Under the pieces are notes generated by a model. The model did not search any database. It was not told where the DNA came from and saw only the letters and a program-made list of their open reading frames with translations. A DNA stretch of 64,000 nt, from NCBI RefSeq assembly GCF_036053395.1, contig NZ_CP107942.1, positions 586,501 to 650,500 on the forward strand, in the 5' to 3' direction. Source of the DNA: Actinoplanes sp. NBC_00393. Its GTDB lineage: Bacteria > Actinomycetota > Actinomycetes > Mycobacteriales > Micromonosporaceae. How positions within the stretch are numbered: the stretch's first letter is position 1; every line of letters begins with the position of its first letter. Of this stretch, positions 7,675 to 52,553 are shown in pieces. A program made the position numbers and the translations under genes.

Positions 7675-7950
7675 GCTGGCGCTCACGCAGGTATTCGGCC
7701 ACGTTCAACCTGCGCCAGCGCCAGCTCGCCCCGCTCGGCTGGCGTCCACGCAGGTAATCAGGCAGGTATAACCTGCGCCAGCGCCAGCTCGCCCCGCTCG
7801 GCTGGCGCTCACGCAGGTAATCGGGCACGCATGACCTGCGCCAGCGCCAGCTCGCCCCGCTCGGCTGGCGCTCACGCAGGTAATCGGGCACGCATGACCT
7901 GCGCCAGCGCCAGCTCGCCCCGCTCGGCTGGCGCTCACGCAGGTAATCGG
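7675..7950. repeat. 63-bp array: four 51-nt hairpins with 12-nt spacers plus a half copy
   Basis: Hairpins lie at 7675-7725, 7738-7788, 7801-7851 and 7864-7914; a truncated fifth runs 7927-7950. Each hairpin has outer arms GCTGGCGCT and AGCGCCAGC (9 bp), a 3x3 internal loop, an inner stem GCAGGT with ACCTGC and a loop of 15 nt. Spacers are identical (TCGCCCCGCTCG). Copies 3 and 4 are identical in sequence; copy 2 has a CT to TC swap in one arm. The same 51+12 layout recurs near 19.0 and 52.2 kb. Confidence 0.9.
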
Positions 7951-8073
7951 CGGGCTGACCCGGCGTCCCCGGGGCATCCGGTGGGCTCGCGGCGGGGCGG
8001 CTGAGGGCGAAGCGCGGGTGGCGGGCGCGCCGAGTGGGTGGACAAAGTGGCCTGATGGGGGCAGCGTCAGATC

Positions 8074-9954
8074 ATGGGTGCTTATCGGGAGGCGTACGAG
8101 CGCAGCATCACCGACCCGGACGGGTTCTGGCGGGAGGCGGCCGCCGCGATCGAGTGGGAGCGGGCGCCGGAGCGGATCCTCGACGACAGCGCGGCGCCGA
8201 TCTTCCGCTGGTTTCCCGATGCCGAGCTGAACACCTGCCACAACGCCCTGGACCGGCACGTCGGGGAGGGGCGCGGTGACCACGCGGCGCTGATCTACGA
8301 CAGCCCGGTCACCGGGACCACAAGGACCTGGTCGTACCGGGAACTGCGCGACGAAGTCGCGATCTTCGCGGGAGCGCTGCGGCGGCTGGGGGTCGAGGCC
8401 GGCGACCGCGTGGTGATCTACATGGCGATGGTGCCGGAAGCGGTCGTCGCGATGCTCGCCTGCGCCCGGCTCGGCGCGGTGCACTCGGTGGTTTTCGGCG
8501 GGTTCGGGGCGCGGGAACTGGCCGTCCGGATCGACGACGCCCGGCCGAAGGTGATCGTGGCGAGTTCGTGCGGTGTCGAGGCCGGCCGGGTGGTGCCCTA
8601 TCAGCCCATGTTGGACGCCGCGCTCGCCGAGGCCGCGCACCGGCCGAGCCACCGGGTGATCCTGCAGCGCCCGCAGGCGCCGGCGACGCTCCGGGACGGC
8701 GATCTGAGCTGGTCGGATGCGATCGCCGGGGCGCAACCGGCGCAGTGTGTGCCGGTGCGGGCCACGGATCCGCTCTACATCCTCTACACGTCGGGCACGA
8801 CCGGGCGCCCCAAGGGCGTGGTTCGCGACAACGGCGGCCATGCGGTCGCGTTGCGGTGGTCGATGGAGAAGATCTTCGGGGTACGCGCGGGCGAAGTCTT
8901 CTGGGCAGCCTCGGATGTGGGGTGGGTGGTCGGCCACTCGTACATCGTCTATGGCCCGCTGCTCGCCGGCGCGACCACGATCCTCTACGAAGGAAAGCCG
9001 GTCGGCACCCCGGATGCGGGCGCGTTCTGGCGGGTCGCCGCCGAGCACCGGGTGACCGCGATGTTCACCGCGCCGACCGCGATCCGCGCGGTCCGCAAGG
9101 AGGATCCGGACGGCAAACTTCTGGAGGGGCGCGATCTGAGCAGCCTGCGCCTGCTCTTCCTGGCGGGGGAGAGGCTGGACCCGCAGACGTACGCGTGGGC
9201 CGGCGACCTGCTCGGCATCCCGGTGATCGACAACTGGTGGCAGACCGAGACCGGCTGGCCGATCGCCGCGAGCCCGCGCGGGCTGGAGGAGCTGCCGACC
9301 CGTCCGGGTTCCCCGTCGGTGCCGATGCCCGGTTACCGGGTGCGGGTCGTCGACGAGTCCGGGACCGCGGTGCCGCCGGGCGAGGAGGGTTCGATCGTCA
9401 TCGGGTTGCCGCTGCCGCCGGGTTGCCTGCCGACCCTGTGGCAGGACGACGAGCGGTACGTGCGCTCCTACCTGACCGCCTTCCAGGGCAACTACCTGAC
9501 CGGCGACGGCGGCCGGTTCGACCCCGACGGCTACCTGTACGTGCTGGGCCGCACCGACGACGTGATCAACGTGGCCGGTCACCGCCTGTCGACCGGTGCC
9601 ATGGAGGAGGTCCTGGCGGCCCATCCCGCGGTCGCCGAGTGCGCCGTGATCGGCGTCGGTGACCTGTTGAAGGGCCAGGTGCCGCGCGGTTTCGTCGTCG
9701 TCAAGAGCGGGGTGCCGGCCGATCCGGCCCGGCTGGAGGAGGAGCTGGTGGCCCGCGTGCGGGAGCGGATCGGCCCGGTGGCCGCGCTACGCCGGGTCGA
9801 CGTCGTCGCCGCTCTCCCGAAGACCCGCTCCGGCAAGATCCTGCGCGGCACCATGCGGGGGATCGCCGACGGCCGGGACGAGCCGATCCCCTCCACGATC
9901 GAAAACCCCGACATCCTCGAGGCCCTGCGCCCAGTCCTGCGCACCCCTCGCTAG
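8074..9954 (+). CDS. prpE: Propionyl-CoA synthetase-type acyl-CoA synthetase
   Basis: 626 residues of the ANL adenylate-forming family. Visible are the acetyl/propionyl-CoA synthetase N-terminal region (DPDGFWREAAAAIEWERAP), the ATP loop YTSGTTGRPKG near residue 238, the ATP motif NWWQTETGWPI, and the C-terminal lysine motif PKTRSGK with catalytic Lys near 588. The segments WRVAAEHRVTAMFTAPTAIRAVRKEDPDG and GLPLPPGCLPTLWQDDERY fit PrpE better than Acs. It activates propionate (or acetate) to the CoA ester in the cytosol. It stands alone and ends at a hairpin-rich convergent junction. No clear ribosome site precedes ATG 8074. Confidence 0.88.
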   Translation: MGAYREAYERSITDPDGFWREAAAAIEWERAPERILDDSAAPIFRWFPDAELNTCHNALDRHVGEGRGDHAALIYDSPVTGTTRTWSYRELRDEVAIFAGALRRLGVEAGDRVVIYMAMVPEAVVAMLACARLGAVHSVVFGGFGARELAVRIDDARPKVIVASSCGVEAGRVVPYQPMLDAALAEAAHRPSHRVILQRPQAPATLRDGDLSWSDAIAGAQPAQCVPVRATDPLYILYTSGTTGRPKGVVRDNGGHAVALRWSMEKIFGVRAGEVFWAASDVGWVVGHSYIVYGPLLAGATTILYEGKPVGTPDAGAFWRVAAEHRVTAMFTAPTAIRAVRKEDPDGKLLEGRDLSSLRLLFLAGERLDPQTYAWAGDLLGIPVIDNWWQTETGWPIAASPRGLEELPTRPGSPSVPMPGYRVRVVDESGTAVPPGEEGSIVIGLPLPPGCLPTLWQDDERYVRSYLTAFQGNYLTGDGGRFDPDGYLYVLGRTDDVINVAGHRLSTGAMEEVLAAHPAVAECAVIGVGDLLKGQVPRGFVVVKSGVPADPARLEEELVARVRERIGPVAALRRVDVVAALPKTRSGKILRGTMRGIADGRDEPIPSTIENPDILEALRPVLRTPR

Positions 9955-9958
9955 CCCG

Positions 9959-10073
9959 GCTGACGGTCAGCGCTGCCTCAAGCGCTCGGAAGCAGCCCTA
10001 GCGGTCAGCCAAGGCCACACCGGCTGGCTCTCAGGGCTGTTCGCCGGGCCGCGAAACAGCACTGAGAGCCAGC
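9959..10073. repeat. 51-nt hairpin, same family as the 63-bp arrays, plus a degenerate partner
   Basis: 10023-10073 is exactly 51 nt. The arm 10023-10042 (GCTGGCTCTCAGGGCTGTT...) pairs with 10054-10073 (AAACAGCACTGAGAGCCAGC) with only two mismatches. Its outer arm GCTGGCTCT/AGAGCCAGC differs from GCTGGCGCT/AGCGCCAGC elsewhere by paired changes. At 9959-10009 a weaker 51-nt palindrome (GCTGAC...GTCAGC outside, GCTGC...GCAGC inside) sits 13 nt upstream. Both lie between convergent stops and could act in termination. Confidence 0.8.
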
Positions 10074-10078
10074 TGTCG

Positions 10079-10119
10079 GGTGTGTGGCGCCGGAGTGACC
10101 GGGCCGGGCGCCACACACC
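10079..10119. terminator. Bidirectional hairpin terminator
   Basis: A perfect 13-bp stem (GGTGTGTGGCGCC with GGCGCCACACACC) encloses a 15-nt loop, directly beside the stop of the leftward sulfatase gene and after the rightward acyl-CoA synthetase gene. It can serve both converging transcripts. Confidence 0.75.
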
Positions 10120-10122
10120 GCG

Positions 10123-12012
10123 CTAGTGGGCGGTGGAACCGAAAGCGGTCAGGAAGCGGTCCCGGAAGGCGTTCATCGGCCAGACCGGCGCGTCCGTGGC
10201 CGGCTTCAGTCCTTCGGTCCAGTTCCAGCTGCTGATCTTGTCGAGGACCGCCTGGTCCCGGGCCACGATGGTGATCGGCACGTCGTGGCTGGCGTCCTCC
10301 CCGGAGACCACCTTGGACGGCTGGTGGTCGCCGAGGAAGACCAGCACGAGGTTCTCGTCGCCGTACGTCTGCGCCCAGTCGAGCAGCGACGTGAGCGAGT
10401 ATTGGATCGACTTGCCGTACTCGGCCCGGACCTTCTTCGAGCTGCCCCAGATGTCGGCCTTCTTCGGCGCGTTCGCCACGGTCTCGTGGTAGATCGAGCC
10501 GTCACCGACCTTCTCCCAGTCCATGAACGACGGAATCGGCGCCCACGGCGTGTGACTGGAGACCAGCGGCATCTCGACCATCAGCGGCTGCCGGTCCGCC
10601 TTCTTGTATTCCAACTCGGTGAACTGCTTGAGGGTGTACTGGTCGGGCATCGGCGACCAGCTGAACTTGGGACCCTGATAGCCGAGGTTGCGCGAGTCCC
10701 AGACCCGGTTGTAGCCGTAGAACGCCCCCTCCGGCCAGGCCCGGGTGGCGCCCGGCATGACGCTCACGGTGTCCCATCCGGCCCGCTTGAACGAGCTGGT
10801 GACGGTGAGCCGGTCACTGGCGGTGAGGTTGCGGTACCGGCTCTGGCTGTTGATCCACAGGCCGGACAGCAGGGTGGAGTGGGCCAGCCAGCTGCTGCCG
10901 CCGAAGGTGGGCGACGTCAGCCAGCCGCTGCGGGCCCCGAAGCCGGCCTGCTGCAGCTGCGGCGCCCGCTCGTCCAGGACAGCGTTGACGCCGGGCGCCA
11001 GTTCCGGCGCCTCCAGGGCGTTGCGGCCGTAGCTCTCCACGAACGTGAAGATCACGTCCTTGCCGCGCAGACCGGTCAGCAGCTGGTCGCCGGTGGCGGT
11101 CCGGAACGGGTCGGCGGCCACCTCCTTGGCGAACTTCGCCTCGTCAGCGAGGCCGGCGCGTGCCTGATGGGCGCGATCCCAGGCGTAGGTCACGGTGGTC
11201 CGGGCGGCGACCGGGACGTTCGGGACGATCTGTACGCCGAGCAGGAACGTGGCCAGCCAGGCGACAGCGATCCCGCCCGCGGTGTACGCCGAGGTCCTGC
11301 GGTGACGGGCGACGAGGGCGGTGACCCGCAGGACGGACCAGGTGGTGACGGCGAGGACCACGACGACGCCGACCGCCACCCCGGCGATGGCGCCGTAGGC
11401 CGCGGTCTGGCCGTACGACTCGCGGATGAAGCCGTAGGTGTCGTCGAAGAGCACCCAGTCGAGGACCGGGTCGAACGGCCGGGCCAGGATCTCGAACCAC
11501 CCCATGTCCAGGGACTTCTCGATGACCAGCCAGCCCAGGACGACGCCGGCGATCGACGCGAGGATCAGGCGGGGGCGGCGCGGCACCGCGATGAGCAGGG
11601 CGATCCCGAGGGCGGCCTCGATCGGGATGCGGGCGAACCCGCCGGCCGAGAGGCGCTTGAGCACGTTCGGGTAGAGCAGCGCGGCGAACACGATCACGCA
11701 TGCCAGGACGGTCAAGGTGAGCGCGACCCTGGGTTGGTTCAACAGCCGGCGTACGCGCCCAGGCTGCACCGCGGCCGGTTCGGTCGCCGGCTCGTCCGCG
11801 GAGGCGGCGGGTTCCGGGACCGCCCGGTCCGGCTCGTCGGGAGCGGTGTCCGAGACTGCCCGGTCCGGCTCATGCTGAGCGTCGTCCGGGGTCTGCGGCT
11901 CGTCCGGGGTCGGCGTCGGATCGGCGAGGTCTGTCGGCTGCACGTCATGGGGAACGCATGGTCCGCCGGTTCGGTTCAGCGTGGTGACCAAATGCCTTAC
12001 CGTGTCGATCAT
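10123..12012 (-). CDS. Membrane sulfatase-like / LTA-synthase-like phosphotransferase
   Basis: Up to 629 residues. The first 105 residues are a cytosolic, Pro/Asp/Glu-rich linker with repeated DEPDRAV segments. About five membrane helices follow (roughly 107-270), then an extracytoplasmic alkaline-phosphatase-like domain with VIFTFVESYGRN (metal site), GGSSWLAHSTLLSG (expected Thr/Ser nucleophile region) and LVFLGDHQPS. This is the layout of lipoteichoic-acid synthase-type phosphoglycerol transferases, so a polar head-group transferase for a wall polymer or lipid is likely. The substrate is unknown. ATG 12012 overlaps the divergent gene's ATG; GTG 11943 is an alternative start. Confidence 0.8.
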   Translation of the reverse strand: MIDTVRHLVTTLNRTGGPCVPHDVQPTDLADPTPTPDEPQTPDDAQHEPDRAVSDTAPDEPDRAVPEPAASADEPATEPAAVQPGRVRRLLNQPRVALTLTVLACVIVFAALLYPNVLKRLSAGGFARIPIEAALGIALLIAVPRRPRLILASIAGVVLGWLVIEKSLDMGWFEILARPFDPVLDWVLFDDTYGFIRESYGQTAAYGAIAGVAVGVVVVLAVTTWSVLRVTALVARHRRTSAYTAGGIAVAWLATFLLGVQIVPNVPVAARTTVTYAWDRAHQARAGLADEAKFAKEVAADPFRTATGDQLLTGLRGKDVIFTFVESYGRNALEAPELAPGVNAVLDERAPQLQQAGFGARSGWLTSPTFGGSSWLAHSTLLSGLWINSQSRYRNLTASDRLTVTSSFKRAGWDTVSVMPGATRAWPEGAFYGYNRVWDSRNLGYQGPKFSWSPMPDQYTLKQFTELEYKKADRQPLMVEMPLVSSHTPWAPIPSFMDWEKVGDGSIYHETVANAPKKADIWGSSKKVRAEYGKSIQYSLTSLLDWAQTYGDENLVLVFLGDHQPSKVVSGEDASHDVPITIVARDQAVLDKISSWNWTEGLKPATDAPVWPMNAFRDRFLTAFGSTAH

Positions 12013-12694
12013 GAATCAGCGGGTGGACGTGGTCGTGCCGGTGGAGTCGGTGCCGAATCTGATCGTGCCGCCACTCGCCGTGACCACGGGCGGCCCGGAA
12101 GTCGATTGGGTCGACATGCCGGGTGGCGCGCTGGCCTTCCAGCGTCATCCGGTCGTGCGCCTGCCCTACGACCCGGCGAGCGCGGCCAAAGCCCGCCGAT
12201 ACCTGCGGTTGAGGCCGGTCGACCTGATCGTCCTGCCGCTTCTGGTGCTGACCGCCGTGCCGGTCTTCGTCGACCCCGAGTTCTTTCCGGGGGAGACCTT
12301 CTGGATCTGGGCCCGCCTCGCCGTGCTGATCCTCCTGTTGATTTCCACCTCGACCCGGCAGCGATGGCGGCCCAAGCAGGACCCGGTGACCGAGGCCGGG
12401 CGGGTGGTGCGGATCCCGGACCTGCCCGAAGCGGTCGCGCACGAGTGGTTGCGGCTCAACCCGGGGAGTGTGCAGATCGTCGCGAAGGGCGTACCGATCC
12501 GTCGTTTTCGCCCTGAGGTCTATGTGCTCTGGGCGATCGGCTGCCTGGCCGGAGCTGCCGGCCTGTTCGCGGCCCTCGTCCTTGATCTGGTGCCCGGTTC
12601 GTTCTGGCTCTGGGTGACCGTGCCGGCCCTGTTCTTCGCTGCCGTGGTCTGCAAGCTGAAGAGCCAGCCGCCCGGATTGCTGCTTCCTGACTGA
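12011..12694 (+). CDS. Hypothetical four-helix membrane protein
   Basis: 227 residues from ATG 12011. After about 75 soluble residues come two hydrophobic helices (VDLIVLPLLVLTAVPVFV and LAVLILLLIS), a soluble middle segment of about 60 residues, and two more helices near the C-terminus (VLWAIGCLAGAAGLFAALVLDLV and FWLWVTVPALFFAAVV). I recognise no family. It is divergent from the LTA-synthase-like gene, with start codons on opposite strands overlapping by 2 nt, so the promoters must lie inside each other's reading frames or the partner starts further in. Confidence 0.7.
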   Translation: MNQRVDVVVPVESVPNLIVPPLAVTTGGPEVDWVDMPGGALAFQRHPVVRLPYDPASAAKARRYLRLRPVDLIVLPLLVLTAVPVFVDPEFFPGETFWIWARLAVLILLLISTSTRQRWRPKQDPVTEAGRVVRIPDLPEAVAHEWLRLNPGSVQIVAKGVPIRRFRPEVYVLWAIGCLAGAAGLFAALVLDLVPGSFWLWVTVPALFFAAVVCKLKSQPPGLLLPD

Positions 12695-12724
12695 GAAGCA
12701 CTGAGCCCTGCGTCATCGTCCTCT

Positions 12725-13131
12725 GGCGGTCGCCCTGGACGGGCGCTGCTTCACCGCTGATCGCTGGGGTCGATCTGGCGCGGGAAGCTGACGAGGCCCA
12801 GCTGGACTTCGTCACGTTCGAGGACAGCTTCGGACCGCTGACCGGCGGGGGCCGCAGGCAGACGGAGGGTTGCGGGACGGCGGAGGGCCGCTGGCCGAGG
12901 GAGGGCGGCCGTGCCTGAGCAGATCATCCGCGCCGCGCATTTCCCGGGCGTAAACAACACGACGGTCCGGAGCGGTGCCGCGCAGCCCGCAGGGCCATCC
13001 GGTGGTGCTGCAGGCCGGCGACTCCACCGGCGGCCGGGAGCTCGCCGCGCAGCCAAGGAGCTTTCTCTCTAACGGCCGATCTTGCGGAGTTCTCCGGCAC
13101 CGAGGGCGTCGATTTCGTCAAGATCGGCGGA
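12725..13131 (+). pseudogene. Relic of an NtaA/SnaA-type flavin monooxygenase
   Basis: Three pieces of a luciferase-like monooxygenase of the NtaA/SnaA/DszA group can be read in different frames. First, LAVALDG near 12725. Second, LAREADEAQLDFVTFEDSFG at about 12772-12831, the usual RAGLDFVTFEDS region. Third, VPRSPQGHPVVLQAGDSTGG at about 12973-13032, the family's FMN-site region, continuing RELAAQ. The parts between are missing or scrambled, so most of the roughly 1.2-kb gene is deleted. It lies directly upstream of a LysR gene, which may once have regulated it. Confidence 0.7.
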
Positions 13132-14100
13132 ATGGAGTTACGGCAGCTCAGCTACGTCGAGGCGGTGGCCCGGTACGGCGGGTTCACCCGGGCCGCGGAA
13201 CGGCTGCACGTCGCGCAGTCGGCGGTGTCCGCGCAGATCCGGGCGCTGGAGGCGGAACTCGGGCTGGCGCTGTTCGCCCGGACCACCCGCAAGGTGGCGC
13301 TGACCCCGGCCGGGGAGCTGTTCGTGGCCCGGGCGCGGCGGGTGCTGGCCGAGTTGGACGGGGCGCGCACCGAGATCCACGAGATCACCTCGGTGGTCAA
13401 CGGGCGGGTCAGCCTGGGGGCGACCGCTGCGCTCGGGCCGTACGACCTGCCGCAGGCGCTGGCCCGGTTCCGCGACCGGTTCCCCGGCATCGCGCTGCGG
13501 CTGCGGTCCGGGCTGCTCACCGGCCTGCTCGGGGCTCTCGACGAGGGAGAACTCGACCTGGTCGTCGGGCCGCTGTACGCCGACCTGCCGGCCCGCTTCG
13601 ACGCGCTGCCGCTGGTCGACGAGCAGCTGCTGCTGGCGCTGCCGCTCGGCCACCCGCTGGCCCGGGCCGGCCGGCTCACCCTGGGCGAGGCCCGCGACGA
13701 GCCGTTCGTCAGCCTGCCGCGGGGCCTCGGGCTGCGCTGGATCCTCGAGGACGCCGCCCGCTCGGCCGGGTTCGCGCCGCGGGTGGAGTTCGAGGCGGCC
13801 GGCGCGGCCGGCATCCGGGAACTGATCGCCGCCGGGCTCGGGGTGGGCCTGCTGTCCCGGGCGGCGGCCGAGGACGCGCCCGGGCCGGCGGTGGCCGTAC
13901 GGCACCTGCACCCGACGCCGGTGCACCCGCCGATCGGGGTGATGCACAGCCGGGACCGGCCGCTCAGCCCGGCCGCGCAGTCCTGCCGGCATCATCTCGT
14001 CGAGGTGGCCGGCCGCCGGCCCGACCCCAGCCATCGCACCGAATCAGGCCCAGGCGGGGGGAGTGCCGGTGGTGACGCGGAAGGCGGGCACCTCCCATAG
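13132..14100 (+). CDS. LysR-family regulator
   Basis: 322 residues, start ATG 13132 (MELRQLSYVEAVARYGGFTRAAERLHVAQSAVSAQIRALE), the standard N-terminal winged helix-turn-helix. A periplasmic-binding-protein-like effector domain covers about residues 90-290. It ends inside the convergent neighbour, overlapping by 57 nt, and the last 30 residues are low-complexity and probably read through from an older stop. Its target is unknown. The monooxygenase relic just upstream is on the same strand, so no intact divergent target is present. Confidence 0.88.
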   Translation: MELRQLSYVEAVARYGGFTRAAERLHVAQSAVSAQIRALEAELGLALFARTTRKVALTPAGELFVARARRVLAELDGARTEIHEITSVVNGRVSLGATAALGPYDLPQALARFRDRFPGIALRLRSGLLTGLLGALDEGELDLVVGPLYADLPARFDALPLVDEQLLLALPLGHPLARAGRLTLGEARDEPFVSLPRGLGLRWILEDAARSAGFAPRVEFEAAGAAGIRELIAAGLGVGLLSRAAAEDAPGPAVAVRHLHPTPVHPPIGVMHSRDRPLSPAAQSCRHHLVEVAGRRPDPSHRTESGPGGGSAGGDAEGGHLP

Positions 14101-14874: not shown

Positions 14875-14987
14875 GTAAACACTCTGATCCACCTCCCCGA
14901 TGAAGTCAATAAAACCTACAGGCGAAGTAGGTTTTGGCCGGGATATCTACTGGTCCTGCGGTCTGCGCTCTGGTAGATCCGTACGTC

Positions 14988-15338: not shown

Positions 15339-15394
15339 CTCCACCCCGTCTGCGAGCGCTCCTAGCGGCTGCGCATCGGCATCGGCTGGAGCGG

Positions 15395-15817: not shown

Positions 15818-15905
15818 GCGCCCCAGGGTAGGCGCTGATACGCGGTGAAGTCAGTGCGCCGCCGCGGCGCGAAACCGATCGACTCGTACAGGCGGACCGC
15901 CGGAC
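15818..15905 (-). pseudogene. C-terminal remnant of a GNAT acetyltransferase
   Basis: Read on the minus strand this stretch encodes PAVRLYESIGFAPRRRTDFT, then AYQRL, the usual last 25-30 residues of a GNAT N-acetyltransferase (beta-6/alpha-4 and following strand). No upstream acetyl-CoA loop (Q/RxxGxG/A) precedes it; the next 140 nt hold no in-frame continuation. I read it as a fragment left after deletion. Confidence 0.55.
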
Positions 15906-15978
15906 ATCTGCAGTCGGTCGTAGAGGTAGCCGAGGCCGGCCCAGAACAGGGTTTCCGGTCCGGCCTGCGAGATGGTGA

Positions 15979-16912: not shown

Positions 16913-16922
16913 GGAAACCAAG

Positions 16923-18735: not shown

Positions 18736-19221
18736 GTCGGCCCGGGTGGCGCCGAGCCCAATGCCCCAGATGCCCGCTGCCACCCGGACGCTGCCCCACC
18801 GCAGCTGAGGACCGACGAGGGCAGCCCGGCGTTGGCCGTCACCAGCAGCCCACGAGCCGCCCGCCCTCGAGCCGCCCGCCCACCACGCCGGTTGCCGCCC
18901 GCCCTCGAGCCGCCCGCCCACCACGCCGGTTGCCGCTCGGCCCTAGGGCGCCCTAGCGGCGCGGCCGGTGGCCACGAGCCGCCGGTCAGGCTGGTTTCGC
19001 GGTCGTTGTTGGGTGGCTGAGTGGCGGCTGGTGGGTGTGGGCCGCCGGTCAGGCTGGTTTCGCGGTCGTTGTTGGGTGGCTGAGTGGCGGCTGGTGGGTG
19101 TGGGCCGCCGGTCAGGCCGGTTTCACGGTTGTTGTTGGGTGGCTCAGTGGCGGCTGGTGGGTGCGGGCCGCCGGTCAGGCCGGTTTCGCGGCCGTTGTGG
19201 GCGGTCCGGGAGTCGCCGGGC
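18694..19221. other. Repeat-rich intergenic stretch without a gene
   Basis: 528 nt between the convergent ATPase and methyltransferase genes. It contains the gene-end repeat above, a GC-rich motif CGAGCCGCCCGCC at 18853, 18868 and 18906 (38-bp unit for the last two), and the 63-bp array at 18978-19200. No protein-like open frame is convincing. Confidence 0.75.
18978..19200. repeat. 63-bp array, three full units and one partial, again 51+12
   Basis: Units start at 18978, 19041, 19104 and 19167. Each begins GCCGCCGGTCAGG, and each full one ends at GGCGGC 51 nt later (19028, 19091, 19154). A 12-nt spacer TGGTGGGTGTGG follows (TGGTGGGTGCGG before the last). The outer arm GCCGCC/GGCGGC is a perfect 6 bp; the interior pairs only partly. 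The sequence is unlike the 7.7 and 52.2 kb arrays, but the unit lengths are identical. Confidence 0.85.
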
Positions 19222-33489: not shown

Positions 33490-33664
33490 CGGCTTGTGTT
33501 TCAGGGGTACGTGCGAGCTTGTCGCGCCGACGTTGTGGCCGTTCCCGGCGTTCCGCGCTCGCCGGCTGCCTTGGCGCGATCGCCAGGCTTGTTCTGTTGG
33601 TTGCGCTCGAACCATTCAGGTCTTGGTTCGGCCGTGAGTGCTCTTCCTTTCGGCGCGGCAGCCC

Positions 33665-33812
33665 TTTGGCCTGACAGCGCCTTCCCCGGCGTGGCAGCCT
33701 TCCTTTGGCCTGACTGCTCCTTCCCTGGCGTGGCAGCCTTCCTTTGGCCTGACAGCTCCTTCCCTGGCGTGGCAACCTTCCTTTGGCCTGACTGCTCCTC
33801 TTTGGCGTGGCA
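33665..33812. repeat. 39-bp tandem repeat, four units
   Basis: Units start at 33665, 33704, 33743 and 33782 with TTTGGCCTGACNGCTCC, followed by TTCCCTGGCGTGGCAGCC. The last unit is shortened. The unit length is a multiple of three, so reading frames pass through it and produce repetitive peptides that are not evidence for a gene. Confidence 0.88.
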
Positions 33813-34075
33813 GCGCTGGCGTGCGGCCGGGGCTGCTATTTCCGCCTCTTCGATCACTGAGCCGTCCGCTGGCGCTCCCTGCCGGGCGGTGAGACAGCGC
33901 TACCGAGCGGCAGGGTGATCAACCGGGCTCGAAACAAGGCCCGAGCCGCGCGTCAGCGACCTCACCGGCCCAGCGTCGGTGCTTGCTTGCCGGCTGCCCC
34001 TGTGCGCTGCTGCCCGGCCTGGGAGGAGATCCGCCAGGCACGAGGGTGGCCCGGAGCGTGGCTGCCTGAGCCGGC

Positions 34076-44246: not shown

Positions 44247-44263
44247 GTGCGCATGCTCTCATA

Positions 44264-45423: not shown

Positions 45424-45470
45424 GCCAACCGGCTGTTGCCACCGGCCATCGGCTACAGGCCACGGGCCAC

Positions 45471-45660
45471 CGGCTACAGGGCACCGGCTACAGGGCACCG
45501 GCTACAGGGCACCGGCTACAGGGCACCGGCTACAGGGCACCGGCTACAGGGCACCGGCTACAGGGCACCGGCTACAGGGCACCGGCTACAGAGCACCGGC
45601 TACAGAGCACCGGCTACCGGCTACCGGCTACCGGCTACCGGCCACCGGCCACCGGCCACC
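45471..45660. repeat. 14-bp array (ten units) passing into a 7-bp array (seven units)
   Basis: CGGCTACAGGGCAC is repeated ten times without gap from 45471 to 45610; the last two units read AGAGCAC. It continues as CGGCTAC four times and CGGCCAC three times (45611-45659). The 14-mer is two heptamers, CGGCTAC and AGGGCAC, which suggests growth from a 7-bp unit. Confidence 0.92.
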
Positions 45661-45948
45661 GGAGATCTTGGCAGTCCAGCTCAAGTTGGTCGATCACCCA
45701 AGACTGAGCTCTCGCTGGATCTGGTGGGATGCGGGATCGAGCACTGATGGTCAGCCGCGCGGCTGCGTCCGAGCCGTGCCGCTGTCGCCCTGCAGACGAA
45801 ACCAGGTCGACGGCCAGGTGGCGGACCACGATCAGCGGCCGGTCTCTGATTTCGAAGACCGAGAAGCGCGGTGCCGAGCGGCAGCGCAAGCCACCGGCAC
45901 GTCGGTGTTCGGGGTGGTGGGGGTGAGGCCTTCGGGGCGGGGTGAGGC

Positions 45949-45986
45949 GGCCCGGGCGGCGACCCCCCTTGACCGCCGCCCGGGCC
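45949..45986. terminator. Strong hairpin, possible terminator
   Basis: A perfect 13-bp stem (GGCCCGGGCGGCG with CGCCGCCCGGGCC) around a 12-nt loop, followed by GGGCTTTGTG. It is the most stable simple hairpin in this region, but lies more than 480 nt from either neighbouring stop. Confidence 0.5.
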
Positions 45987-46202
45987 GGGCTTTGTGTGCG
46001 CCACAGGGCGCGCCCTCGATTGGCTCCCAGTGGGCCCTCCAGGTGGGCTCCCGAACCTGGCGGTCCCAGGAGGGCCTTGCTGCTGACCGTGGGTCGGCGC
46101 TGCACACCCTGGGACCGCACGGCTCAACCCGGGACATGAGACCGTGCTGCTCAATATGGACCCGTGCTGCTCAACGTGTATCTCCTGCTCAACCTGGGAC
46201 CC

Positions 46203-46380
46203 GCGGCTTGGGGCCGACCTGCGGCTTGGGGCCGACCTGCGGCTTGAGGCTGGCCTGCGGCTTGAGGCTGGCCTGCGGCTTGATGCTGGCCTGCGGCTTG
46301 ATGCTGGCCTGCGGCTTGAGGCTGGCCTGCGGCTGAGGCCGACCTGCGGCTTGAGGCTGACCTGCGGCTCATGGCCACCT
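46203..46380. repeat. 18-bp tandem repeat, about ten units
   Basis: The consensus is GCGGCTTGAGGCTGGCCT, starting at 46203; two units are 17 bp. Variants (TTGGGGCCGACC, TTGATGCTGGCC) occur in adjacent pairs, a sign of stepwise duplication. Confidence 0.88.
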
Positions 46381-46473
46381 GCGGTTCGAGGCAGGACCGC
46401 GGATCGCGGCACCGCTGGGAGGTTCCGCCCAAGCTGGGCACTGTCGCGGGCTGGGCGCCGTGGCGTGTGAAGG

Positions 46474-47313
46474 CTAGGCAGCGACCTCCGCAAGGATTGG
46501 CTTGACCAGGCTGGCGAACTCCGTCGGGCGTTCGATCTGGGGCATGTGGCCGGTCCGGGGAAACAGATGAGACCGGGCATGTGGGAAAGCTGCCTGCGCC
46601 GCCGCCATGTGGGTGCACGGGAGGATCATGTCGCGATCGCCCCAGATGATCATTGTGGGTTTGACGTGGGGGGACACGCGATCGAGGAGGTCGGTGCGCC
46701 AGGCTGCGGCTACGCCTCGGAAACCGCCCAGCGCGCGGGCGATCTCCAGGTAGACCGGGGCGAAGTCCGGCTGGCGGGCGATCTTGATGGCCATCTCGAT
46801 CCGCTCGCGGGTGACCATGGCGCGGTCGGCGAAGAGGTTGCGTTCCACGCGCGGGGCGGTCCACCGGTCGATGCGGCGCAGCATCTGCCGGCCCAGGCCG
46901 GGGACGGCCAGCATGCGCAGGGCGATGGTGACCTCCTTGCCGAAGCCTGCACTGTTGACGAGCGTCAACGTTGACACCCGCTCAGGTGTACTGGACAGCA
47001 TCTCCATGGACACCGCGCCGCCCAGCGAGTTGCCCATCAAGTGCACAGGGCGGGTCTCGCCGAGCGTGTCGAGGCTCGCCCACACGCCCTCGGCCAGCAC
47101 CGGCAGTGTGGTCGGCGACGGCATCCGCTGCGACAGGCCGAAGCCGGGCATGTCCAAGCTGATCACCCGGTACTCGGCGCCGAGCAGTTCGTGCTGCGGC
47201 CACCAGTCCTCCAGGCTGCGGCCGATGCCGTGCAGCAGGATGACGGGCGGTGCGGCCGGGTCGCCGGTCTCATGGAAGCGGATACGGGTGCCCCGAACGT
47301 CCACGTAATTCAT
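46474..47313 (-). CDS. Alpha/beta hydrolase
   Basis: 279 residues. VILLHGIGRSLEDWWPQHELLGAEYRVISLDMPGFGLSQR and the elbow HLMGNSLGGAVSMEMLSSTPERVSTLTLVNSAG (Ser in GNSLG) mark the fold, with Asp in MIIWGDRDMILP and His in FPRTGHMPQIERP. The profile resembles meta-cleavage-product/lactone hydrolases. It overlaps the upstream SDR gene by 4 nt and is last in an operon with the flavin monooxygenase. Plausibly hydrolyses an ester or lactone made by that monooxygenase. Confidence 0.88.
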   Translation of the reverse strand: MNYVDVRGTRIRFHETGDPAAPPVILLHGIGRSLEDWWPQHELLGAEYRVISLDMPGFGLSQRMPSPTTLPVLAEGVWASLDTLGETRPVHLMGNSLGGAVSMEMLSSTPERVSTLTLVNSAGFGKEVTIALRMLAVPGLGRQMLRRIDRWTAPRVERNLFADRAMVTRERIEMAIKIARQPDFAPVYLEIARALGGFRGVAAAWRTDLLDRVSPHVKPTMIIWGDRDMILPCTHMAAAQAAFPHARSHLFPRTGHMPQIERPTEFASLVKPILAEVAA

Positions 47314-48200
47314 CGCTCGACCGCCGCCGAGCCGGTGCCGTGGGCGGTGGCGCTGGGGGTGCGGCTGCCACGGGCGACCGTGAGCGCGCGCACGATGCGT
47401 GCGTGACCGACCGGCATCAGCCGGGCCAGCAGGTCCGGCGCCTTGGCGCTGGCCGCGATCAGCAGCCGTGCCTTTCGCTTCGCGACGGCCCGCAGAATCT
47501 GCTCCGCGGCCTTGTCCGGGGGATAGCTGAGCAGCGCGGCGAAGAGCTTACGATTCGGTTCGATCTCTTCTTCCGGTACGCGTGAGCCCACCAGAGCCGA
47601 CTCCGCGATCCGCGTCCGGATGCCCCCGGGGTGAACCGTGGTCACCCCGACGCCGTTCTCGAGAAGCTCACTGCGCAGCGATTCACTCAACCCGCGCAGA
47701 GCGAACTTGCTGGCGCTGTACGCACTCTGTCCTGGTGGCGCGATCAACCCGAACAGGCTGGACACGTTGACGAGATGACTGCCCGGCGATGCAGTCAATG
47801 CGGGAATCAACATGTGCGTCATCAACATGGGTGCGCGGAAGTTGACGTTCATGACGTGCTCGAACTGCTCAATGTTGACTTGATCGAAGCGTCCACCCAG
47901 CGCGATCCCGGCGTTGTTGATCAACAGACCGATCGCCGGATGCTCGGCCATGATCCGATCGGCCAGGCCCTCGACGACCGGCCGCTCGGACAGGTCGGCG
48001 ACGATGTCCTGCACAGGGAGGCCGGGATGGGCTGAGCGGATCCGGTCGGCCACCGGCTTCAACCGGTCCGCGTCGACGTCGATCAGGACCAGGTCGCTGC
48101 CGCGATGGGCCAAACCGTAGGCGAGCTGCTCGCCGATCCCACTTGCCGCGCCGGTGAGCACAGCGGTCTGCCCGGCGAACCGGTATTCGGGCAGTCTCAT
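47310..48200 (-). CDS. Short-chain dehydrogenase/reductase
   Basis: 296 residues. TGAASGIGEQLAYGLA, LLINNAGIALGG, VNVSSLFGLI and YSASKFALRGLSESLRSELLENGVGVTTVHPGGIRT are the classical SDR motifs. The type is common next to flavin monooxygenases in mycobacteria. It overlaps both neighbours by 4 nt. It probably oxidises an alcohol substrate of the monooxygenase or reduces its product. Confidence 0.9.
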   Translation of the reverse strand: MRLPEYRFAGQTAVLTGAASGIGEQLAYGLAHRGSDLVLIDVDADRLKPVADRIRSAHPGLPVQDIVADLSERPVVEGLADRIMAEHPAIGLLINNAGIALGGRFDQVNIEQFEHVMNVNFRAPMLMTHMLIPALTASPGSHLVNVSSLFGLIAPPGQSAYSASKFALRGLSESLRSELLENGVGVTTVHPGGIRTRIAESALVGSRVPEEEIEPNRKLFAALLSYPPDKAAEQILRAVAKRKARLLIAASAKAPDLLARLMPVGHARIVRALTVARGSRTPSATAHGTGSAAVER

Positions 48201-50077
48201 CGGATCACCTCTTCTTTGCGGTCGCGGCCAAGGTCGGGGCCATGAGCGGCGCCGAGGCCGGGGGTGACGGCATGATCAGCGGCGCTGGAGGCGGGTTCAG
48301 AGCCAACGCCAACGCCGACGCCGGGTCGGGGGCTGGTGTCACGGCCGGGAGCGGAAGCGGAGCCAGTGGCATAGCCAGGAGCGGAACCTGTGCCAGGTTC
48401 GGGACCGGAAGCGGATTCAGGGCCGAGGGCTGGACCGGCAGCGGGAGCGGCGCCAGGAGCAGCAGCGGGAGCGGCGCTAGGGCTGGCAACGAAAGCAGCG
48501 CCAGGAGCAGCAGCGGGAGCGGCGCTAGGGCTGGCAACGGAAGCAGCGACAGGAGCAGCAGCGCGAGCGGTGCTAGGGCCGGCAGCGGGAGCGGCATTAA
48601 GGCCCGCAGCGGGGCCGGCGCCAAGAGCGGAGTCACCGGCAGCACGCCGGATGAACGCCATGTCGCGGGTGACATCGGCTCGTGGGGTCGTCAGCACATC
48701 GCGCATGTAGTTCTGGCGGACCAGCCATGGGTCGCGATCGCCTTGGACCGGGAACTTGTCGAGGGCACGCTGCACGTACCCGGAAGAGAGATCAAGCAAA
48801 GGCCGGCCGATGCCGGCCGGCGCCGTCGGGGTCGCGCTTGCGTAGCCGTGCCGTTCCATGTGGTCGAGCAGTTTCAGCAGGTAGCGGTGCGACAGATCGG
48901 CCCGCAGCGTCCAGGAGGCGTTGACGTAGCCGATGCAGTAGGCGAAGTTCGGCACCCCGGCGAGCATCAACCCCCGGTAGGTGGCCCGCCCGCCGACCTC
49001 GATCGGCTCGCCGTCCACGGCCAGGTCGATTCCGCCGAGCGGCAGCAGGGTCAGCCCGGTCGCGGAGACCACGACGTCCGCGTCGAGCACCGTGCCCGAT
49101 TTGAGGCGGATGCCCTCGGGCACGAACGTCTCGATGTGGTCGGTCACCACCGACGCCCGGCCGGACGTGATCGAGGTGTACAGATCACCGGACGGGATCA
49201 CGCAGAGTCGCTGATCCCAGGGGTCGTAGGACGGTTTGAAGTGCTCATCCACGTACCCCGGATTCTGCAGGTAGCGCAACGCAATGCCGCGCAGGGCGCG
49301 GCGGACCAGCCGCGGCCGATGCCTGGCCAGCTGATAGAAGGTCTGCGTGAGCAGGATGTTCTTGGCGCGGGCGACCCGGTTGGCCGCCTTCGGCGGCAGC
49401 AGCTTGCGGGCCAGGTCGGCGATCACGTCCCGGTCGGGGAGAGGCGTGACGTACGTGGGGGAGCGCTGAAGCATCGTCACATGTGCCGCGTCGGCGGCCA
49501 TCGCCGGAACCAGCGTCACCGCGGTCGCGCCACTGCCGATCACCACGACCCGTTTGCCGCGATAGTCCAGATCCGCCGGCCAGAACTGCGGATGCACGAC
49601 CCGCCCCTGGAACTCGTCCAGACCCGGAAAGTCCGGCTGATAGCCCTCGTCGTAGCGGTAGTAGCCGGCGCATCCGTAGAGGAACCTGCAGGTGTAGACG
49701 TCGCCGCCGGCGGTGCGCACGGTCCAGCGGGCGTCCGGGGAGGACCAGTCCGCGCGTACCACCCGGGTGCCGAACCGGATGTGCCGGTCGATGCCGGCCT
49801 CCTCGGCGGTCTCCTCGATGTACCGGCGGATCTTGTCGCCACCGGCCAGGGCCTCCGGCTCGCGCCACGGCCGGAACGGGTAGCTCAGAGTGAACATGTC
49901 CGAATCGGATCGCACGCCGGGATAGCGGAACAGGTCCCAGGTGCCGCCGATCGCGTCGCGGGCCTCGAGGATCACGTACGTGTCGCGGGGGCGCTGTTTC
50001 TGCAACCGCCAGGCGGCGCCGATCCCGGACAGACCGGCGCCGATGATCAGCACGTCGAAGTCGCGGTCAGCCGGCAT
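48197..50077 (-). CDS. Flavin-containing (Baeyer-Villiger-type) monooxygenase with repetitive tail
   Basis: 626 residues from ATG 50077. FAD motif VLIIGAGLSGIGAAWRLQ at about residues 8-25, KRVVVIGSGATAVTLVPAMA for NADPH, and the FSYPFRPWREPEA and RGLMLAGVPNFAYCIGY segments place it with class B monooxygenases of the mycobacterial EtaA/MymA type. The enzyme core ends near residue 490. About 130 residues of Ala/Pro/Gly/Ser-rich sequence follow, built partly from a 16-residue repeat (AFVASPSAAPAAAPGA). Such a tail is unusual. Start overlaps the DUF4873 gene by 11 nt. Confidence 0.9.
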   Translation of the reverse strand: MPADRDFDVLIIGAGLSGIGAAWRLQKQRPRDTYVILEARDAIGGTWDLFRYPGVRSDSDMFTLSYPFRPWREPEALAGGDKIRRYIEETAEEAGIDRHIRFGTRVVRADWSSPDARWTVRTAGGDVYTCRFLYGCAGYYRYDEGYQPDFPGLDEFQGRVVHPQFWPADLDYRGKRVVVIGSGATAVTLVPAMAADAAHVTMLQRSPTYVTPLPDRDVIADLARKLLPPKAANRVARAKNILLTQTFYQLARHRPRLVRRALRGIALRYLQNPGYVDEHFKPSYDPWDQRLCVIPSGDLYTSITSGRASVVTDHIETFVPEGIRLKSGTVLDADVVVSATGLTLLPLGGIDLAVDGEPIEVGGRATYRGLMLAGVPNFAYCIGYVNASWTLRADLSHRYLLKLLDHMERHGYASATPTAPAGIGRPLLDLSSGYVQRALDKFPVQGDRDPWLVRQNYMRDVLTTPRADVTRDMAFIRRAAGDSALGAGPAAGLNAAPAAGPSTARAAAPVAASVASPSAAPAAAPGAAFVASPSAAPAAAPGAAPAAGPALGPESASGPEPGTGSAPGYATGSASAPGRDTSPRPGVGVGVGSEPASSAADHAVTPGLGAAHGPDLGRDRKEEVIR

Positions 50078-50372
50078 CGCGGACCTCCCGGAACCACGGG
50101 GGTGTGCCGGTGCCGGTGATCCGGACGCCACCCCAGGGGTCCGGATCACCGAGCTTCACCGGCGTCTCGCGCTCGTCGATGACGAGCGCGGCCTTGCGCA
50201 GGCCGTTGCCGACGCGTTCGCGCAACATCTCATCGGGTCCGGTGCGGCCGGCCCAGCGGAACCGGCCCTCGATCGGCTCGAAGCGGGCCGACATCCGGAC
50301 CTCGACCGAGACCGTCCCGTCGTCCAGCCGTAACTGTGCCGGCCCCCGGTACTCCTCCTCTTCGGTGCTCAC
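50067..50372 (-). CDS. DUF4873 domain protein
   Basis: 101 residues from GTG 50372, which overlaps the TetR stop (GTGA). It has EYRGPAQLRLDDGTVSVEVRMSARFEPIEGRFRWAGR and GDPDPWGGVRITGTGTPPWF, typical of DUF4873. In other actinobacteria this domain is often fused to flavin monooxygenases, so the separate copy here probably assists or regulates the adjacent monooxygenase. Biochemical function is unknown. Confidence 0.82.
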   Translation of the reverse strand: MSTEEEEYRGPAQLRLDDGTVSVEVRMSARFEPIEGRFRWAGRTGPDEMLRERVGNGLRKAALVIDERETPVKLGDPDPWGGVRITGTGTPPWFREVRDAG

Positions 50373-51061
50373 GCCCTGTCCGCCCACCCTTCGTGTGCCG
50401 CCAGTCCTCCGGGAATGTCGGCGGCGCGGCGCATGCCGGCGATACCGCTCCAGAGGAACGTCGTCAGGTATTCGCCGAGCGCGTCCCGGCTGATCGGCTG
50501 CTGTTGCCGCAGCCACCAGTCACCGACCGCCTGTACGTAGCCGACCACCCCGTACGCCCAGGGCAGCGCGGCCCCGGAGTCCAGCCCGCGGGCCCGCAGC
50601 CGATCGCCGAAGATCCGCGCCAGGCCGCTGGCCACGGTGTCCATCACGTCGGCGACCACGTCGCGGTGCCGCGCGATGTCCGGCTGGTGCACGACGAACC
50701 GGTAGAGGTTGCGGTCGCCCTCGATGTGCGCGAGGTAGACGTCGATCGCCGCGGCGATGATCGCCCGCTCCTCGCGGACCGCGGCGACGGCCGGGACCAT
50801 CGCCTCGATCACCATGTTTCCGGCCTGCTGGCCGACGGCGAGCCACAGCTCGGACTTGTCGGCGAAGTAGCGGTAGAGCACCGGCTTGCTGACCCCGGCG
50901 TGGGCGGCGATCGCCTCCATGCCGATGTCCGGCCCGTGCATCCGGATCGCCTCGATCGCCGCAGTGGTCAGCTCCGCCCGGCGTTGTTCACGGTGACCGT
51001 CCCAGCGGCCGCGGCGGCCGTCCGATCGATCGGGATTGACGGGGGGAGTGACCGAGTTCAT
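50369..51061 (-). CDS. TetR-family regulator
   Basis: 230 residues from ATG 51061. Helix-turn-helix TTAAIEAIRMHGPDIGMEAIAAHAGVSKPVLYRYFADKSELWLAVG, then a helical domain. It is first in the leftward operon with DUF4873, monooxygenase, SDR and hydrolase, and divergent from the AurF-like gene; overlapping palindromes lie between. It probably controls both directions in response to a lipophilic substrate. Confidence 0.88.
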   Translation of the reverse strand: MNSVTPPVNPDRSDGRRGRWDGHREQRRAELTTAAIEAIRMHGPDIGMEAIAAHAGVSKPVLYRYFADKSELWLAVGQQAGNMVIEAMVPAVAAVREERAIIAAAIDVYLAHIEGDRNLYRFVVHQPDIARHRDVVADVMDTVASGLARIFGDRLRARGLDSGAALPWAYGVVGYVQAVGDWWLRQQQPISRDALGEYLTTFLWSGIAGMRRAADIPGGLAAHEGWADRA

Positions 51062-51071
51062 AGTACTAGAA

Positions 51072-51092
51072 GTAACTGTTACCGCCGGTAAC
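51072..51092. promoter_or_regulatory. TetR operator, overlapping palindromes
   Basis: GTAAC-T-GTTAC (51072-51082) shares its right arm with GTTACCG-C-CGGTAAC (51078-51092). Both are perfect. The site is 11 nt upstream of the TetR ATG and 25 nt before the AurF-like ATG. Confidence 0.7.
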
Positions 51093-51116
51093 GTCAAGGC
51101 TTCGGAGGCTGGAAAA

Positions 51117-52022
51117 ATGACCACAGTGACTCCGTCCGATCGCGACCGCACCGCCACCCGGCTGCTCCGCTCGTCCGCCGAGCACTCGTACGATCCGGAG
51201 GTCGAGATCGACTGGGAGGCGCCGTTCGCCGAGGGCAAGTACTTCGTGCCCCCGCACCGGTCCAGCCTCTACGGCACCGCGCTGTGGGACCGGATGACCC
51301 CCGAGCAGCGCATCGAGCTCACGAAACACGAGGTGGCGAGCATCGCCGGGCTCGGCGTCTGGTTCGAGACCATCCTCATGCAGCTGCTCGTCCGGGAGTA
51401 CTTCAAGCAGGACCCGACCGCCCCGCACGCGCAGTACGCGCTGACCGAAATCGGCGACGAGTGCCGCCACTCGGTGATGTTCGGCCGGATGATCGCGCGC
51501 CTCGGTACTCCGGTGTACCAGCCCGGCGGATTCAACCAGTGGCTCGGCAAGTGGATCGCGCACACCGGCGTCGGCCCACGGATGTACGCGGCCATCCTGA
51601 TCGCCGAGGAGATCCTGGACACCCTGCAGCGCGAGGCGATGGCCGACGAGGACGTGCAGCCGCTGGTCCGCATGGTCTCCCGCATCCACGTCGTCGAGGA
51701 GGCGCGCCACGTCCGCTATGCCCGGGAGGAACTCGCCCGGCAGATCCGGGTGGCCGGCAAAGGGCGGCTCGCCTTCGACAAGCTGGTGATCGGGCGGGCG
51801 GCGTACCTCACCGGGACCCGGCTGGTCGACCCGCGCGTCTACTCCGCGGTCGGCATCGACCCGGAGGAGGGGCGGCGGGCGGCGCGGGCCAACCCGTACC
51901 ACCGGGAGACCATGCGGTGGGCCGGCGAGCGGGTGGTCACGTTCCTCAAGGACCTGGACCTGATCGGCGGGCCGGGCACCGCGTTGTGGCGCGCCTCCGG
52001 CCTGCTGCCGCGGCCCGCCTGA
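51117..52022 (+). CDS. AurF-like diiron oxygenase
   Basis: 301 residues from ATG 51117 with GGAGG upstream. The AurF-type ferritin-like fold shows the metal-binding helices: ELTKHEVASIAGLGVWFETILMQ, TEIGDECRHSVMFGRMI, IAEEILDTLQREAM and RIHVVEEARHVRYAREEL, which supply the Glu/His ligands for two irons. AurF itself oxidises an aryl amine to a nitro group, but most actinobacterial relatives act on unknown, possibly lipid, substrates. No biosynthetic cluster is near. Divergent from the monooxygenase operon and probably co-regulated. Confidence 0.88.
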   Translation: MTTVTPSDRDRTATRLLRSSAEHSYDPEVEIDWEAPFAEGKYFVPPHRSSLYGTALWDRMTPEQRIELTKHEVASIAGLGVWFETILMQLLVREYFKQDPTAPHAQYALTEIGDECRHSVMFGRMIARLGTPVYQPGGFNQWLGKWIAHTGVGPRMYAAILIAEEILDTLQREAMADEDVQPLVRMVSRIHVVEEARHVRYAREELARQIRVAGKGRLAFDKLVIGRAAYLTGTRLVDPRVYSAVGIDPEEGRRAARANPYHRETMRWAGERVVTFLKDLDLIGGPGTALWRASGLLPRPA

Positions 52023-52553
52023 CCCCTGACGCCGGCCGGGCCGGTGGTCCCGCCCAGCCCGGCCGGTCCCGCCCGCATCCCCACAGTTCAAATCCCGCAG
52101 CGGTACGGACAACGCGCGCAGCCGCTTGCCTCCCCGCTGTCACCGCGGCTGATCTTCGCGCCGGTCGTCCTCTGCGACGCTGTCCCGGCTGGCGCTGAGG
52201 GCTGTTTGCGAGCGCGGGAAACAGCCGTGAGCGCCAGCCGTGGTGATCCAGCTGGCGCTGAGGGTTGTTCGCGGGCGTGGGTAACAACCGTGGGAGCCAG
52301 CCGTGGTGATCCAGCTGGCGGTGAGGGTTGTTTGCGGGCGCGGGAAACAGCCGTGAGTGCCAGCTGTGGAGATCGGGTGACGGAGATCGCTGGGGTGCGA
52401 GGTGGTTTCGGCGGAGTTGCCGGTGGTTGGCCGCTGGGTGGGTGACCCGTGGTGCCCGACGGACAGGTGTGATCCGCCCGGTCGGCCGGTGGGCCCGGGG
52501 TGTCGCGCGTGGGAACCTGTCGCGACGTTCGGCGGGTATGGGGAGAGAAATCG
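52023..52553. other. Intergenic stretch without a recognised gene
   Basis: 531 nt. Holds the third 63-bp hairpin array (52188-52364). Upstream of it is a GC-rich segment with the lone string GTTCAAATCC; downstream is sequence leading to a small open frame. No protein family is recognised. Confidence 0.7.
52188..52364. repeat. 63-bp array: three 51-nt hairpins with 12-nt spacers
   Basis: Hairpins at 52188-52238, 52251-52301 and 52314-52364; spacers CGTGGTGATCCA. Copy 1 has the same outer arms as the 7.7-kb array (GCTGGCGCT/AGCGCCAGC), a 3x3 internal loop GAG/GTG and inner stem GGCTGTTT/AAACAGCC. Copy 2 has GGTTGTT/AACAACC, a compensated change. Copy 3 keeps pairing through a G-T pair. Confidence 0.9.

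What the first reader, a model, noticed from the sequence alone, without database searches (positions are those of the whole stretch)
7675..52364. A dispersed 63-bp module: 51-nt hairpin plus 12-nt spacer at four intergenic loci
Arrays at 7675-7950, 18978-19200 and 52188-52364 have exactly the same unit length (63) and the same partition (51-nt palindrome, 12-nt constant spacer). A single 51-nt hairpin lies at 10023-10073. Two of the arrays and the single copy share an outer arm GCTGGCxCT. The spacer differs between arrays but is constant within one. Fixed geometry with variable sequence argues for selection on shape, for example a structured RNA, a protein-binding DNA hairpin or a mobile REP-like element. 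I know of no described family with this geometry in actinobacteria.
Basis: seen in the sequence. Interest (0 to 1): 0.8.

Follow-up and report, generated by a model that had tools for sequence, protein, structure and literature searches.

The report
Actinoplanes 51-nucleotide hairpin repeat family
Hundreds of copies of a 51-base DNA hairpin, often in head-to-tail rows, sit mostly behind the ends of genes in this soil bacterium and in one branch of its genus, and neither what spread them nor their job is known.

Summary
The arrays and the single hairpin are where stated; a further 51-nt hairpin lies at 9959-10009. In the stretches of this Actinoplanes genome that were examined there are 72 arrays with 251 copies; 231 are exactly 51 nt, and 154 of 179 spacers are 11 or 12 nt. 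An evenly spaced 400-kb sample (9 arrays, 28 copies) suggests about 260 arrays and 800 copies. Other species keep the 51-nt hairpin while the inner stem changes in pairs. The family marks one clade: 24 of its 27 genomes have more than one match, none of 39 outside does; none of the other 395 phylum genomes searched matches. Arrays lie mostly between convergent genes (44 of 72), rarely between divergent ones (3 of 72). A Y1/RAYT transposase is not obligatory: 12 of 20 carriers examined show none. Mismatches give no sign of selection on RNA alone. Best reading: a REP-like, probably non-autonomous DNA hairpin repeat, amplified locally with its flank and likely acting as a two-way terminator. Spread and termination are inferred. 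Nine searches of an open-access library found no description of this family.

The parts
7675..7725 (.). 51-nt hairpin, array 1 copy 1
   Evidence: R1 hit, 56.1 bits, E 1.9e-9
7738..7788 (.). 51-nt hairpin, array 1 copy 2
   Evidence: R1 hit, 50.5 bits
7801..7851 (.). 51-nt hairpin, array 1 copy 3
   Evidence: R1 hit, 56.3 bits; DNA fold z -5.2
7864..7914 (.). 51-nt hairpin, array 1 copy 4, identical to copy 3
   Evidence: R1 hit, 56.3 bits; sequence
7927..7950 (.). partial fifth unit of array 1
   Evidence: tandem array runs to 7950
9959..10009 (.).
   Evidence: R1 hit, 49.0 bits, E 7.5e-8; gene call, Pfam AMP-binding and ACAS_N
10023..10073 (.). 51-nt hairpin reported as single copy, between convergent genes
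   Evidence: R1 hit, 62.9 bits; DNA fold z -8.0, RNA z -7.1
18978..19028 (.). 51-nt unit, array 2 copy 1 (GCCGCC type)
   Evidence: R1 hit, 47.1 bits; DNA fold z -3.9, RNA z -2.1
19041..19091 (.). 51-nt unit, array 2 copy 2
   Evidence: R1 hit, 47.1 bits
19104..19154 (.). 51-nt unit, array 2 copy 3
   Evidence: R1 hit, 45.6 bits
19167..19217 (.). degenerate fourth unit of array 2
   Evidence: weak R1 hit, 23.6 bits, E 0.034
52188..52238 (.). 51-nt hairpin, array 3 copy 1
   Evidence: R1 hit, 67.2 bits; DNA fold z -7.7
52251..52301 (.). 51-nt hairpin, array 3 copy 2
   Evidence: R1 hit, 58.0 bits
52314..52364 (.). 51-nt hairpin, array 3 copy 3
   Evidence: R1 hit, 64.4 bits

Best explanation
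A clade-specific family of short non-coding DNA palindromes, REP-like in habit, that arose once in one branch of Actinoplanes and multiplied to several hundred loci. Each unit is a 51-nt (to 57-nt) inverted repeat: a nearly fixed outer arm (GCTGGC, GCTGAC or GCCGCC with its complement), an inner stem that drifts by paired changes and differs between species, and a short loop. Shown: geometry, covariation, copy number in the stretches examined, tandem rows, placement behind genes, clade restriction, and presence/absence differences at single loci. Inferred: (1) a unit reaches new sites as a hairpin of single-stranded DNA, by a trans-acting factor not identified here; (2) at a site it is duplicated together with 11-12 nt of its local flank, by slippage or template switching at the extruded hairpin, which makes spacers alike in an array and different between arrays; (3) behind a gene the stable hairpins work as a two-way transcription terminator or 3'-end barrier, so copies there are tolerated or useful, whereas copies in promoters are lost.
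For: Geometry: 231 of 251 copies exactly 51 nt here, 160 of 163 in three other species. Covariation: 78.5% of cells paired against 31-45% when slid by 1-3 columns, 140 double changes against 69 shuffled; on 71 rows of three other species 89.5% against 32-48% slid, 154 double changes against a highest value of 102 in 200 shuffles. Local amplification: spacer identity 0.82 within against 0.42 between arrays, hairpins 0.83 against 0.62. Placement: 44 convergent, 25 codirectional, 3 divergent of 72 arrays, against 49, 149, 66 of 264 gaps in the evenly spaced sample (Fisher p 1.2e-11 for convergent, 2.6e-5 for divergent). Single origin: the label needs 3 changes on the tree, shuffles 19.8. Variation of loci: of 10 clusters in 400 kb at most two have a counterpart near an ortholog in G010 and none in G029; half an element in the truB-MATE gap of G029 (by eye).
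Against: No mobilising gene was found, and no target duplication or clean empty site was seen; intergenic DNA between species is too diverged. The truB-MATE hairpin is intact only here among 29 gaps read, but the thirtieth genome, G075, has 11 units in the same gap, so old presence with many losses is possible and gains are not proven. Loci are shared between species in other cases too (2 of 3 loci compared between G019 and G021). Termination is untested. Nearness to gene ends is modest (26 of 69 arrays within 20 nt, random placement mean 16.9, highest of 200 runs 24). Copies of one array often score best on different strands (uniform in 25 of 57 arrays).
Confidence: 0.55

Rival explanations
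1. Ordinary two-way intrinsic terminators kept by selection at gene ends; the shared sequence reflects gene conversion and descent, not transposition.
For: Position behind genes; RNA folds of the seven units tested -26 to -59 kcal/mol; tandem hairpins reported to terminate better than single ones in M. smegmatis (PMC8355165, passages read); loci shared between species.
Against: 42 of 66 genomes of the same genus have at most one match though they too must terminate; in 400 kb of synteny most loci are not shared; no G-U excess on the transcribed strand, though convergent arrays would be read from both sides.
Confidence: 0.23
2. Binding sites of a chromosome-organising protein (as BIMEs bind gyrase and IHF), with 62-63 bp, six helical turns, placing units on one face.
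For: Gaps of 11-12 nt (154) and 21-22 nt (6) of 179 differ by one helical turn; palindromic duplex symmetry; no RNA-strand signature.
Against: The inner stem is not conserved in sequence between species, and units of 79, 92, 95-103 and 169 nt in G010 do not keep one phase.
Confidence: 0.1
3. REP elements mobilised by a RAYT (Y1 tyrosine transposase).
For: Abundant extragenic palindromes in rows; 8 of 20 carriers (more than one R2 match) have a Y1_Tnp match against 7 of 40 others (Fisher p 0.11).
Against: 12 of 20 carriers have no Y1_Tnp match, five of them single-contig genomes (G016, G060, G070, G075, G082); no element near the two Y1 fragments of this genome (L145, L146); no common GTAG end (by eye).
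Confidence: 0.07
4. Coincidence or an assembly artefact.
For: GC-rich sequence alone.
Confidence: 0.01

Closest known systems
REP / BIME elements with RAYT
   Same: Abundant extragenic palindromes, clustered, palindromic features preserved when copies differ, suggested role in termination (PMC2817692, passages read).
   Different: 51-57 nt instead of 20-40 (size from the abstract of PMC3733652, listing); no GTAG end; no obligatory Y1/RAYT gene; alternating orientation not shown.
CGTC-tagged REPs
   Same: Palindromic repeats that apparently lack a dedicated transposase (PMC3733652, passages read).
   Different: No common CGTC end seen here (by eye); different length and hosts.
Tandem-hairpin (cluster) terminators
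   Same: Rows of hairpins behind stop codons, U-tract not needed (PMC8355165, passages read).
   Different: There each gene has its own hairpins (my reading of the passages); this is one dispersed family.
Mycobacterial interspersed repetitive units, MIRU (recalled, no call)
   Same: Tandem intergenic repeats of 50-100 bp in an actinobacterium.
   Different: As recalled, not hairpins of fixed length with covarying stems; not compared here.

Membership tests
REP (GTAG/RAYT type) | Many short extragenic palindromes per genome | tested here: met
   251 copies in 72 arrays in the stretches examined; about 800 by extrapolation from 28 copies in 400 kb
REP (GTAG/RAYT type) | Unit of 20-40 bp | tested here: not met
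   231 of 251 copies are 51 nt
REP (GTAG/RAYT type) | GTAG at one end | tested here: not met
   ends and flanks printed, read by eye; no common GTAG
REP (GTAG/RAYT type) | Cognate RAYT (Y1_Tnp) in the genome | tested here: not met
   12 of 20 carriers examined have no PF01797 match; 4 further carriers were not
REP (GTAG/RAYT type) | RAYT gene flanked by the repeats | tested here: not met
   no R1 hit in L145 and L146 around the two Y1 fragments of this genome; other species not tested
Rfam structured RNA | Match to a curated family | tested here: not met
   0 gathering-score matches in the window
Intrinsic terminator | Stable hairpin behind a gene end | tested here: met
   one or two of seven units fold only a little better than shuffles
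Intrinsic terminator | Stops transcription in vivo | not testable with these tools
   no RNA data
Non-autonomous mobile element (MITE-like) | Target-site duplication and clean empty sites | tested here: inconclusive
   syntenic gaps without the element exist but boundaries cannot be aligned, and direction of change is open

The most novel reading that the evidence does not exclude
A class of mobile DNA hairpin with a built-in length rule of 51 nt, spread by a machinery other than Y1/RAYT, whose outer arm is the recognised part and whose inner stem is free to drift as long as it pairs; the machinery duplicates a unit with about one further turn of flanking DNA (11-12 bp).
Probability: 0.27. Interest if true: 0.8.

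Novelty: new variant of a known kind. Interest (0 to 1): 0.6.

Why it matters
It is a large extragenic hairpin family in Actinoplanes for which I found no description in nine searches of an open-access library. It maps to one node of a gene tree, has lineages that seem to have lost it, and has near sister species (G019, G021) with shared and unshared loci. So how such palindromes spread without a RAYT, and whether they end transcription, can be tested directly. Such repeats may also mislead operon and terminator prediction in these genomes.

Tried and rejected
Rfam: no match in the window. Viral contigs: 0 exact matches to the pattern. Plasmids: no match for array 3. IS110-type transposase (PF02371) as partner: matches in 55 of 67 genus genomes, while carriers G070, G076, G080, G082 and G089 have none. 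Recurrent neighbouring gene as mobiliser: 678 proteins around arrays of four species gave 18 clusters, the largest of 4; the clusters were not annotated one by one. RNA level: G-U against A-C 120 to 115 in codirectional arrays and 341 to 402 for the nearer gene in convergent arrays (before mending 113 to 109 and 263 to 333). Orientation to transcription: 14 same, 11 opposite. Papers; most subscription journals are not in the library. The RepRanger paper (PMC12306157, one passage) lists REP counts in the thousands for three other Actinomycetota; I did not compare those sequences.

The counts therefore lacked 44 rows (30 distinct copies) and 12 rows (4 distinct copies); one search puts these back and its numbers are used here. 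One search showed that the truB-MATE gap of G075, which could not read, holds 11 units; for that I lowered the best explanation from 0.6 to 0.55 and the novel case from 0.3 to 0.27, and raised the first rival from 0.2 to 0.23.

Limits: 49 fetched array regions of this genome were chosen because R1 scored them among its best; the evenly spaced sample alone has 9 arrays (6 convergent, 3 codirectional, 0 divergent). L220 was not searched with R2, so 79 of 80 loci were. Gene calls come from my own codon-usage script. Copies in A6 were found with a structured model, so the percentage paired is inflated; double changes and the slid control less so.
Full report
Observation. Reading the window and Tandem Repeats Finder confirm period-63 arrays at 7666-7950, 18978-19198 and 52188-52374 and a 51-nt hairpin at 10023-10073. 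Model R1 (15 copies) adds a hairpin at 9959-10009, 13 nt before the 'single' copy and directly behind the stop codon of gene 8074-9954 (gene calls; Pfam). As DNA, the tested hairpins of arrays 1 and 3 and the copy at 10023 fold far better than shuffles (z -5.2 to -8.0), the array-2 unit less so (-3.9), the 9959 copy not (-1.1).

This genome. The window is C1:586501-650500 of an 11,433,213-bp single-contig genome. In the window, 20 evenly spaced 20-kb stretches and 49 array regions there are 72 arrays with 251 copies. The evenly spaced 400 kb hold 9 arrays and 28 copies, about 260 arrays and 800 copies if that density holds. Of 251 copies 231 are exactly 51 nt; of 179 spacers under 400 nt, 58 are 11 and 96 are 12 nt. 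Spacers are alike within an array (0.82) and unlike between arrays (0.42); hairpins 0.83 and 0.62. Spacers often resemble the flank before the first unit (read by eye), as if a unit were duplicated with its local flank. One array, L055, departs clearly, with units of 48 and 70 nt.

Other genomes. There 160 of 163 copies are 51 nt (79 of 80 loci searched). The 12-nt spacer is the rule in A. xinjiangensis (40 of 47 gaps), less so in A. palleronii (8 of 23) and A. utahensis (2 of 4). The outer arm GCTGGC..GCCAGC is shared, while the inner stem differs: for example GGCTGTTTC..GAAACAGC here, GGGTGTCTC..GAGACACCC in G010, CGTTGTTAT..ATAACAACG in G032. On 44 dissimilar copies 78.5% of cells pair, against 31-45% when slid, with 140 double changes against 69 in shuffles. 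On 71 copies of the three named species 89.5% pair, with 154 double changes against at most 102 in 200 shuffles.

Distribution. Model R2 (57 positions) matches 26 of 67 genomes of the genus at E up to 0.001, two of them (G011, G026) with one match each. In 250 genomes of the family 26 match: 23 of the genus and three others with one or two matches at E 1e-4 to 5e-4, which may be chance. In 396 genomes of the phylum only this one matches. These searches used the stricter filters. On a tree of truB and the neighbouring MATE gene from 66 of 67 genomes, the 24 carriers with more than one match lie in one group of 27 (SH-aLRT 100); three changes suffice, shuffles need 19.8. One gain and two losses (G023; G026 with G079) is the simplest reading. 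It is a two-gene tree with a short search, rooted at the midpoint.

Placement. Of 72 arrays 44 lie between convergent genes, 25 between codirectional and 3 between divergent ones; the 264 gaps of the evenly spaced sample are 49, 149 and 66 (Fisher p 1.2e-11 for convergent, 2.6e-5 for divergent). A. palleronii shows the same (21 of 36 against 45 of 217 gaps, p 1.6e-5; one more codirectional array after mending); A. xinjiangensis (8 of 22) and A. utahensis (7 of 13) are small samples. Twenty-six of 69 arrays lie within 20 nt of a gene end, against 16.9 for random placement and at most 24 in 200 runs.

Turnover. In the truB-MATE gap this genome has one intact hairpin. Of 30 genomes compared, 29 gaps could be read and no other holds an intact unit; G029 has what looks like half of one, G066 and G087 degenerate ones (by eye; G066 23.4 bits). 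The thirtieth, G075, from the other half of the clade, has 11 units spaced 62-64 nt in that gap. So the site may be old with many losses, or hit more than once. In 400 kb of synteny 10 clusters here have at most two counterparts near orthologs in G010 and none in G029, which has a single weak match in its 400 kb. Some loci are shared between species. Of three loci compared between near sisters G019 and G021 two are shared, while at the third G021 carries an array of a different hairpin family.

Mechanism. Y1_Tnp (PF01797) is missing from 12 of 20 carriers examined, and no element lies near the two Y1 fragments of this genome, so a RAYT is not required now. IS110-type transposase shows no relation. 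The transcribed strand of codirectional arrays shows no surplus of G-U over A-C (120 to 115), which argues against selection on RNA alone, although most arrays lie between convergent genes and would be read from both sides. I favour a DNA repeat that spreads and multiplies as a hairpin, with termination as its likely effect at gene ends: the seven units tested fold at -26 to -59 kcal/mol as RNA, and tandem hairpins are reported to terminate better than single ones in M. smegmatis (PMC8355165, passages). Spread as a single-stranded hairpin, duplication with the flank and termination are inferences.

Relation to the known. It works like a REP/BIME element, but tested defining features fail: length, GTAG end, RAYT. 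The REP and stem-loop papers were read in passages only (PMC3733652, PMC2817692, PMC12306157, PMC13155455, PMC2267715, PMC1590033); the words searched found no Actinoplanes in the first, third, fourth and fifth, and the second and sixth were searched for other words. I file it as a new variant of a known kind.

Noticed in passing
L153 about 5387-5654 (genome G021): A different repeat of about 265 nt, about 40 copies at 80-96% identity, holding a 52-nt palindrome GCGATCTTGAACG..CGTTCAAGATCGC; at a locus where sister G019 has the 51-nt hairpin, G021 has an array of this other family.
   Followed up: partly
G010:C1 at about 355, 393, 453, 546, 583 and 635 kb: Six copies of a 1447-nt IS110-type element (37 PF02371 matches in this genome) all abut a repeated hairpin-like sequence unlike the 51-nt family, as if it were their target.
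   Followed up: partly
L050 1385-1505 (genome G019): A dispersed repeat of about 120 nt with dozens of matches in G019 and G021, next to a 51-nt hairpin.
   Followed up: no
   Followed up: no
window 45468-45656: Tandem repeat of a 14-nt unit, 13.5 copies, 96% matches.
   Followed up: no
window 33663-33814 and 46198-46392: Tandem repeats of period 39 (3.9 copies) and 18/36.
   Followed up: no
L055 9547-10129: Array with units of 48 and 70 nt besides 51 and 53, GC about 0.8, the clearest departure from the fixed length.
   Followed up: no
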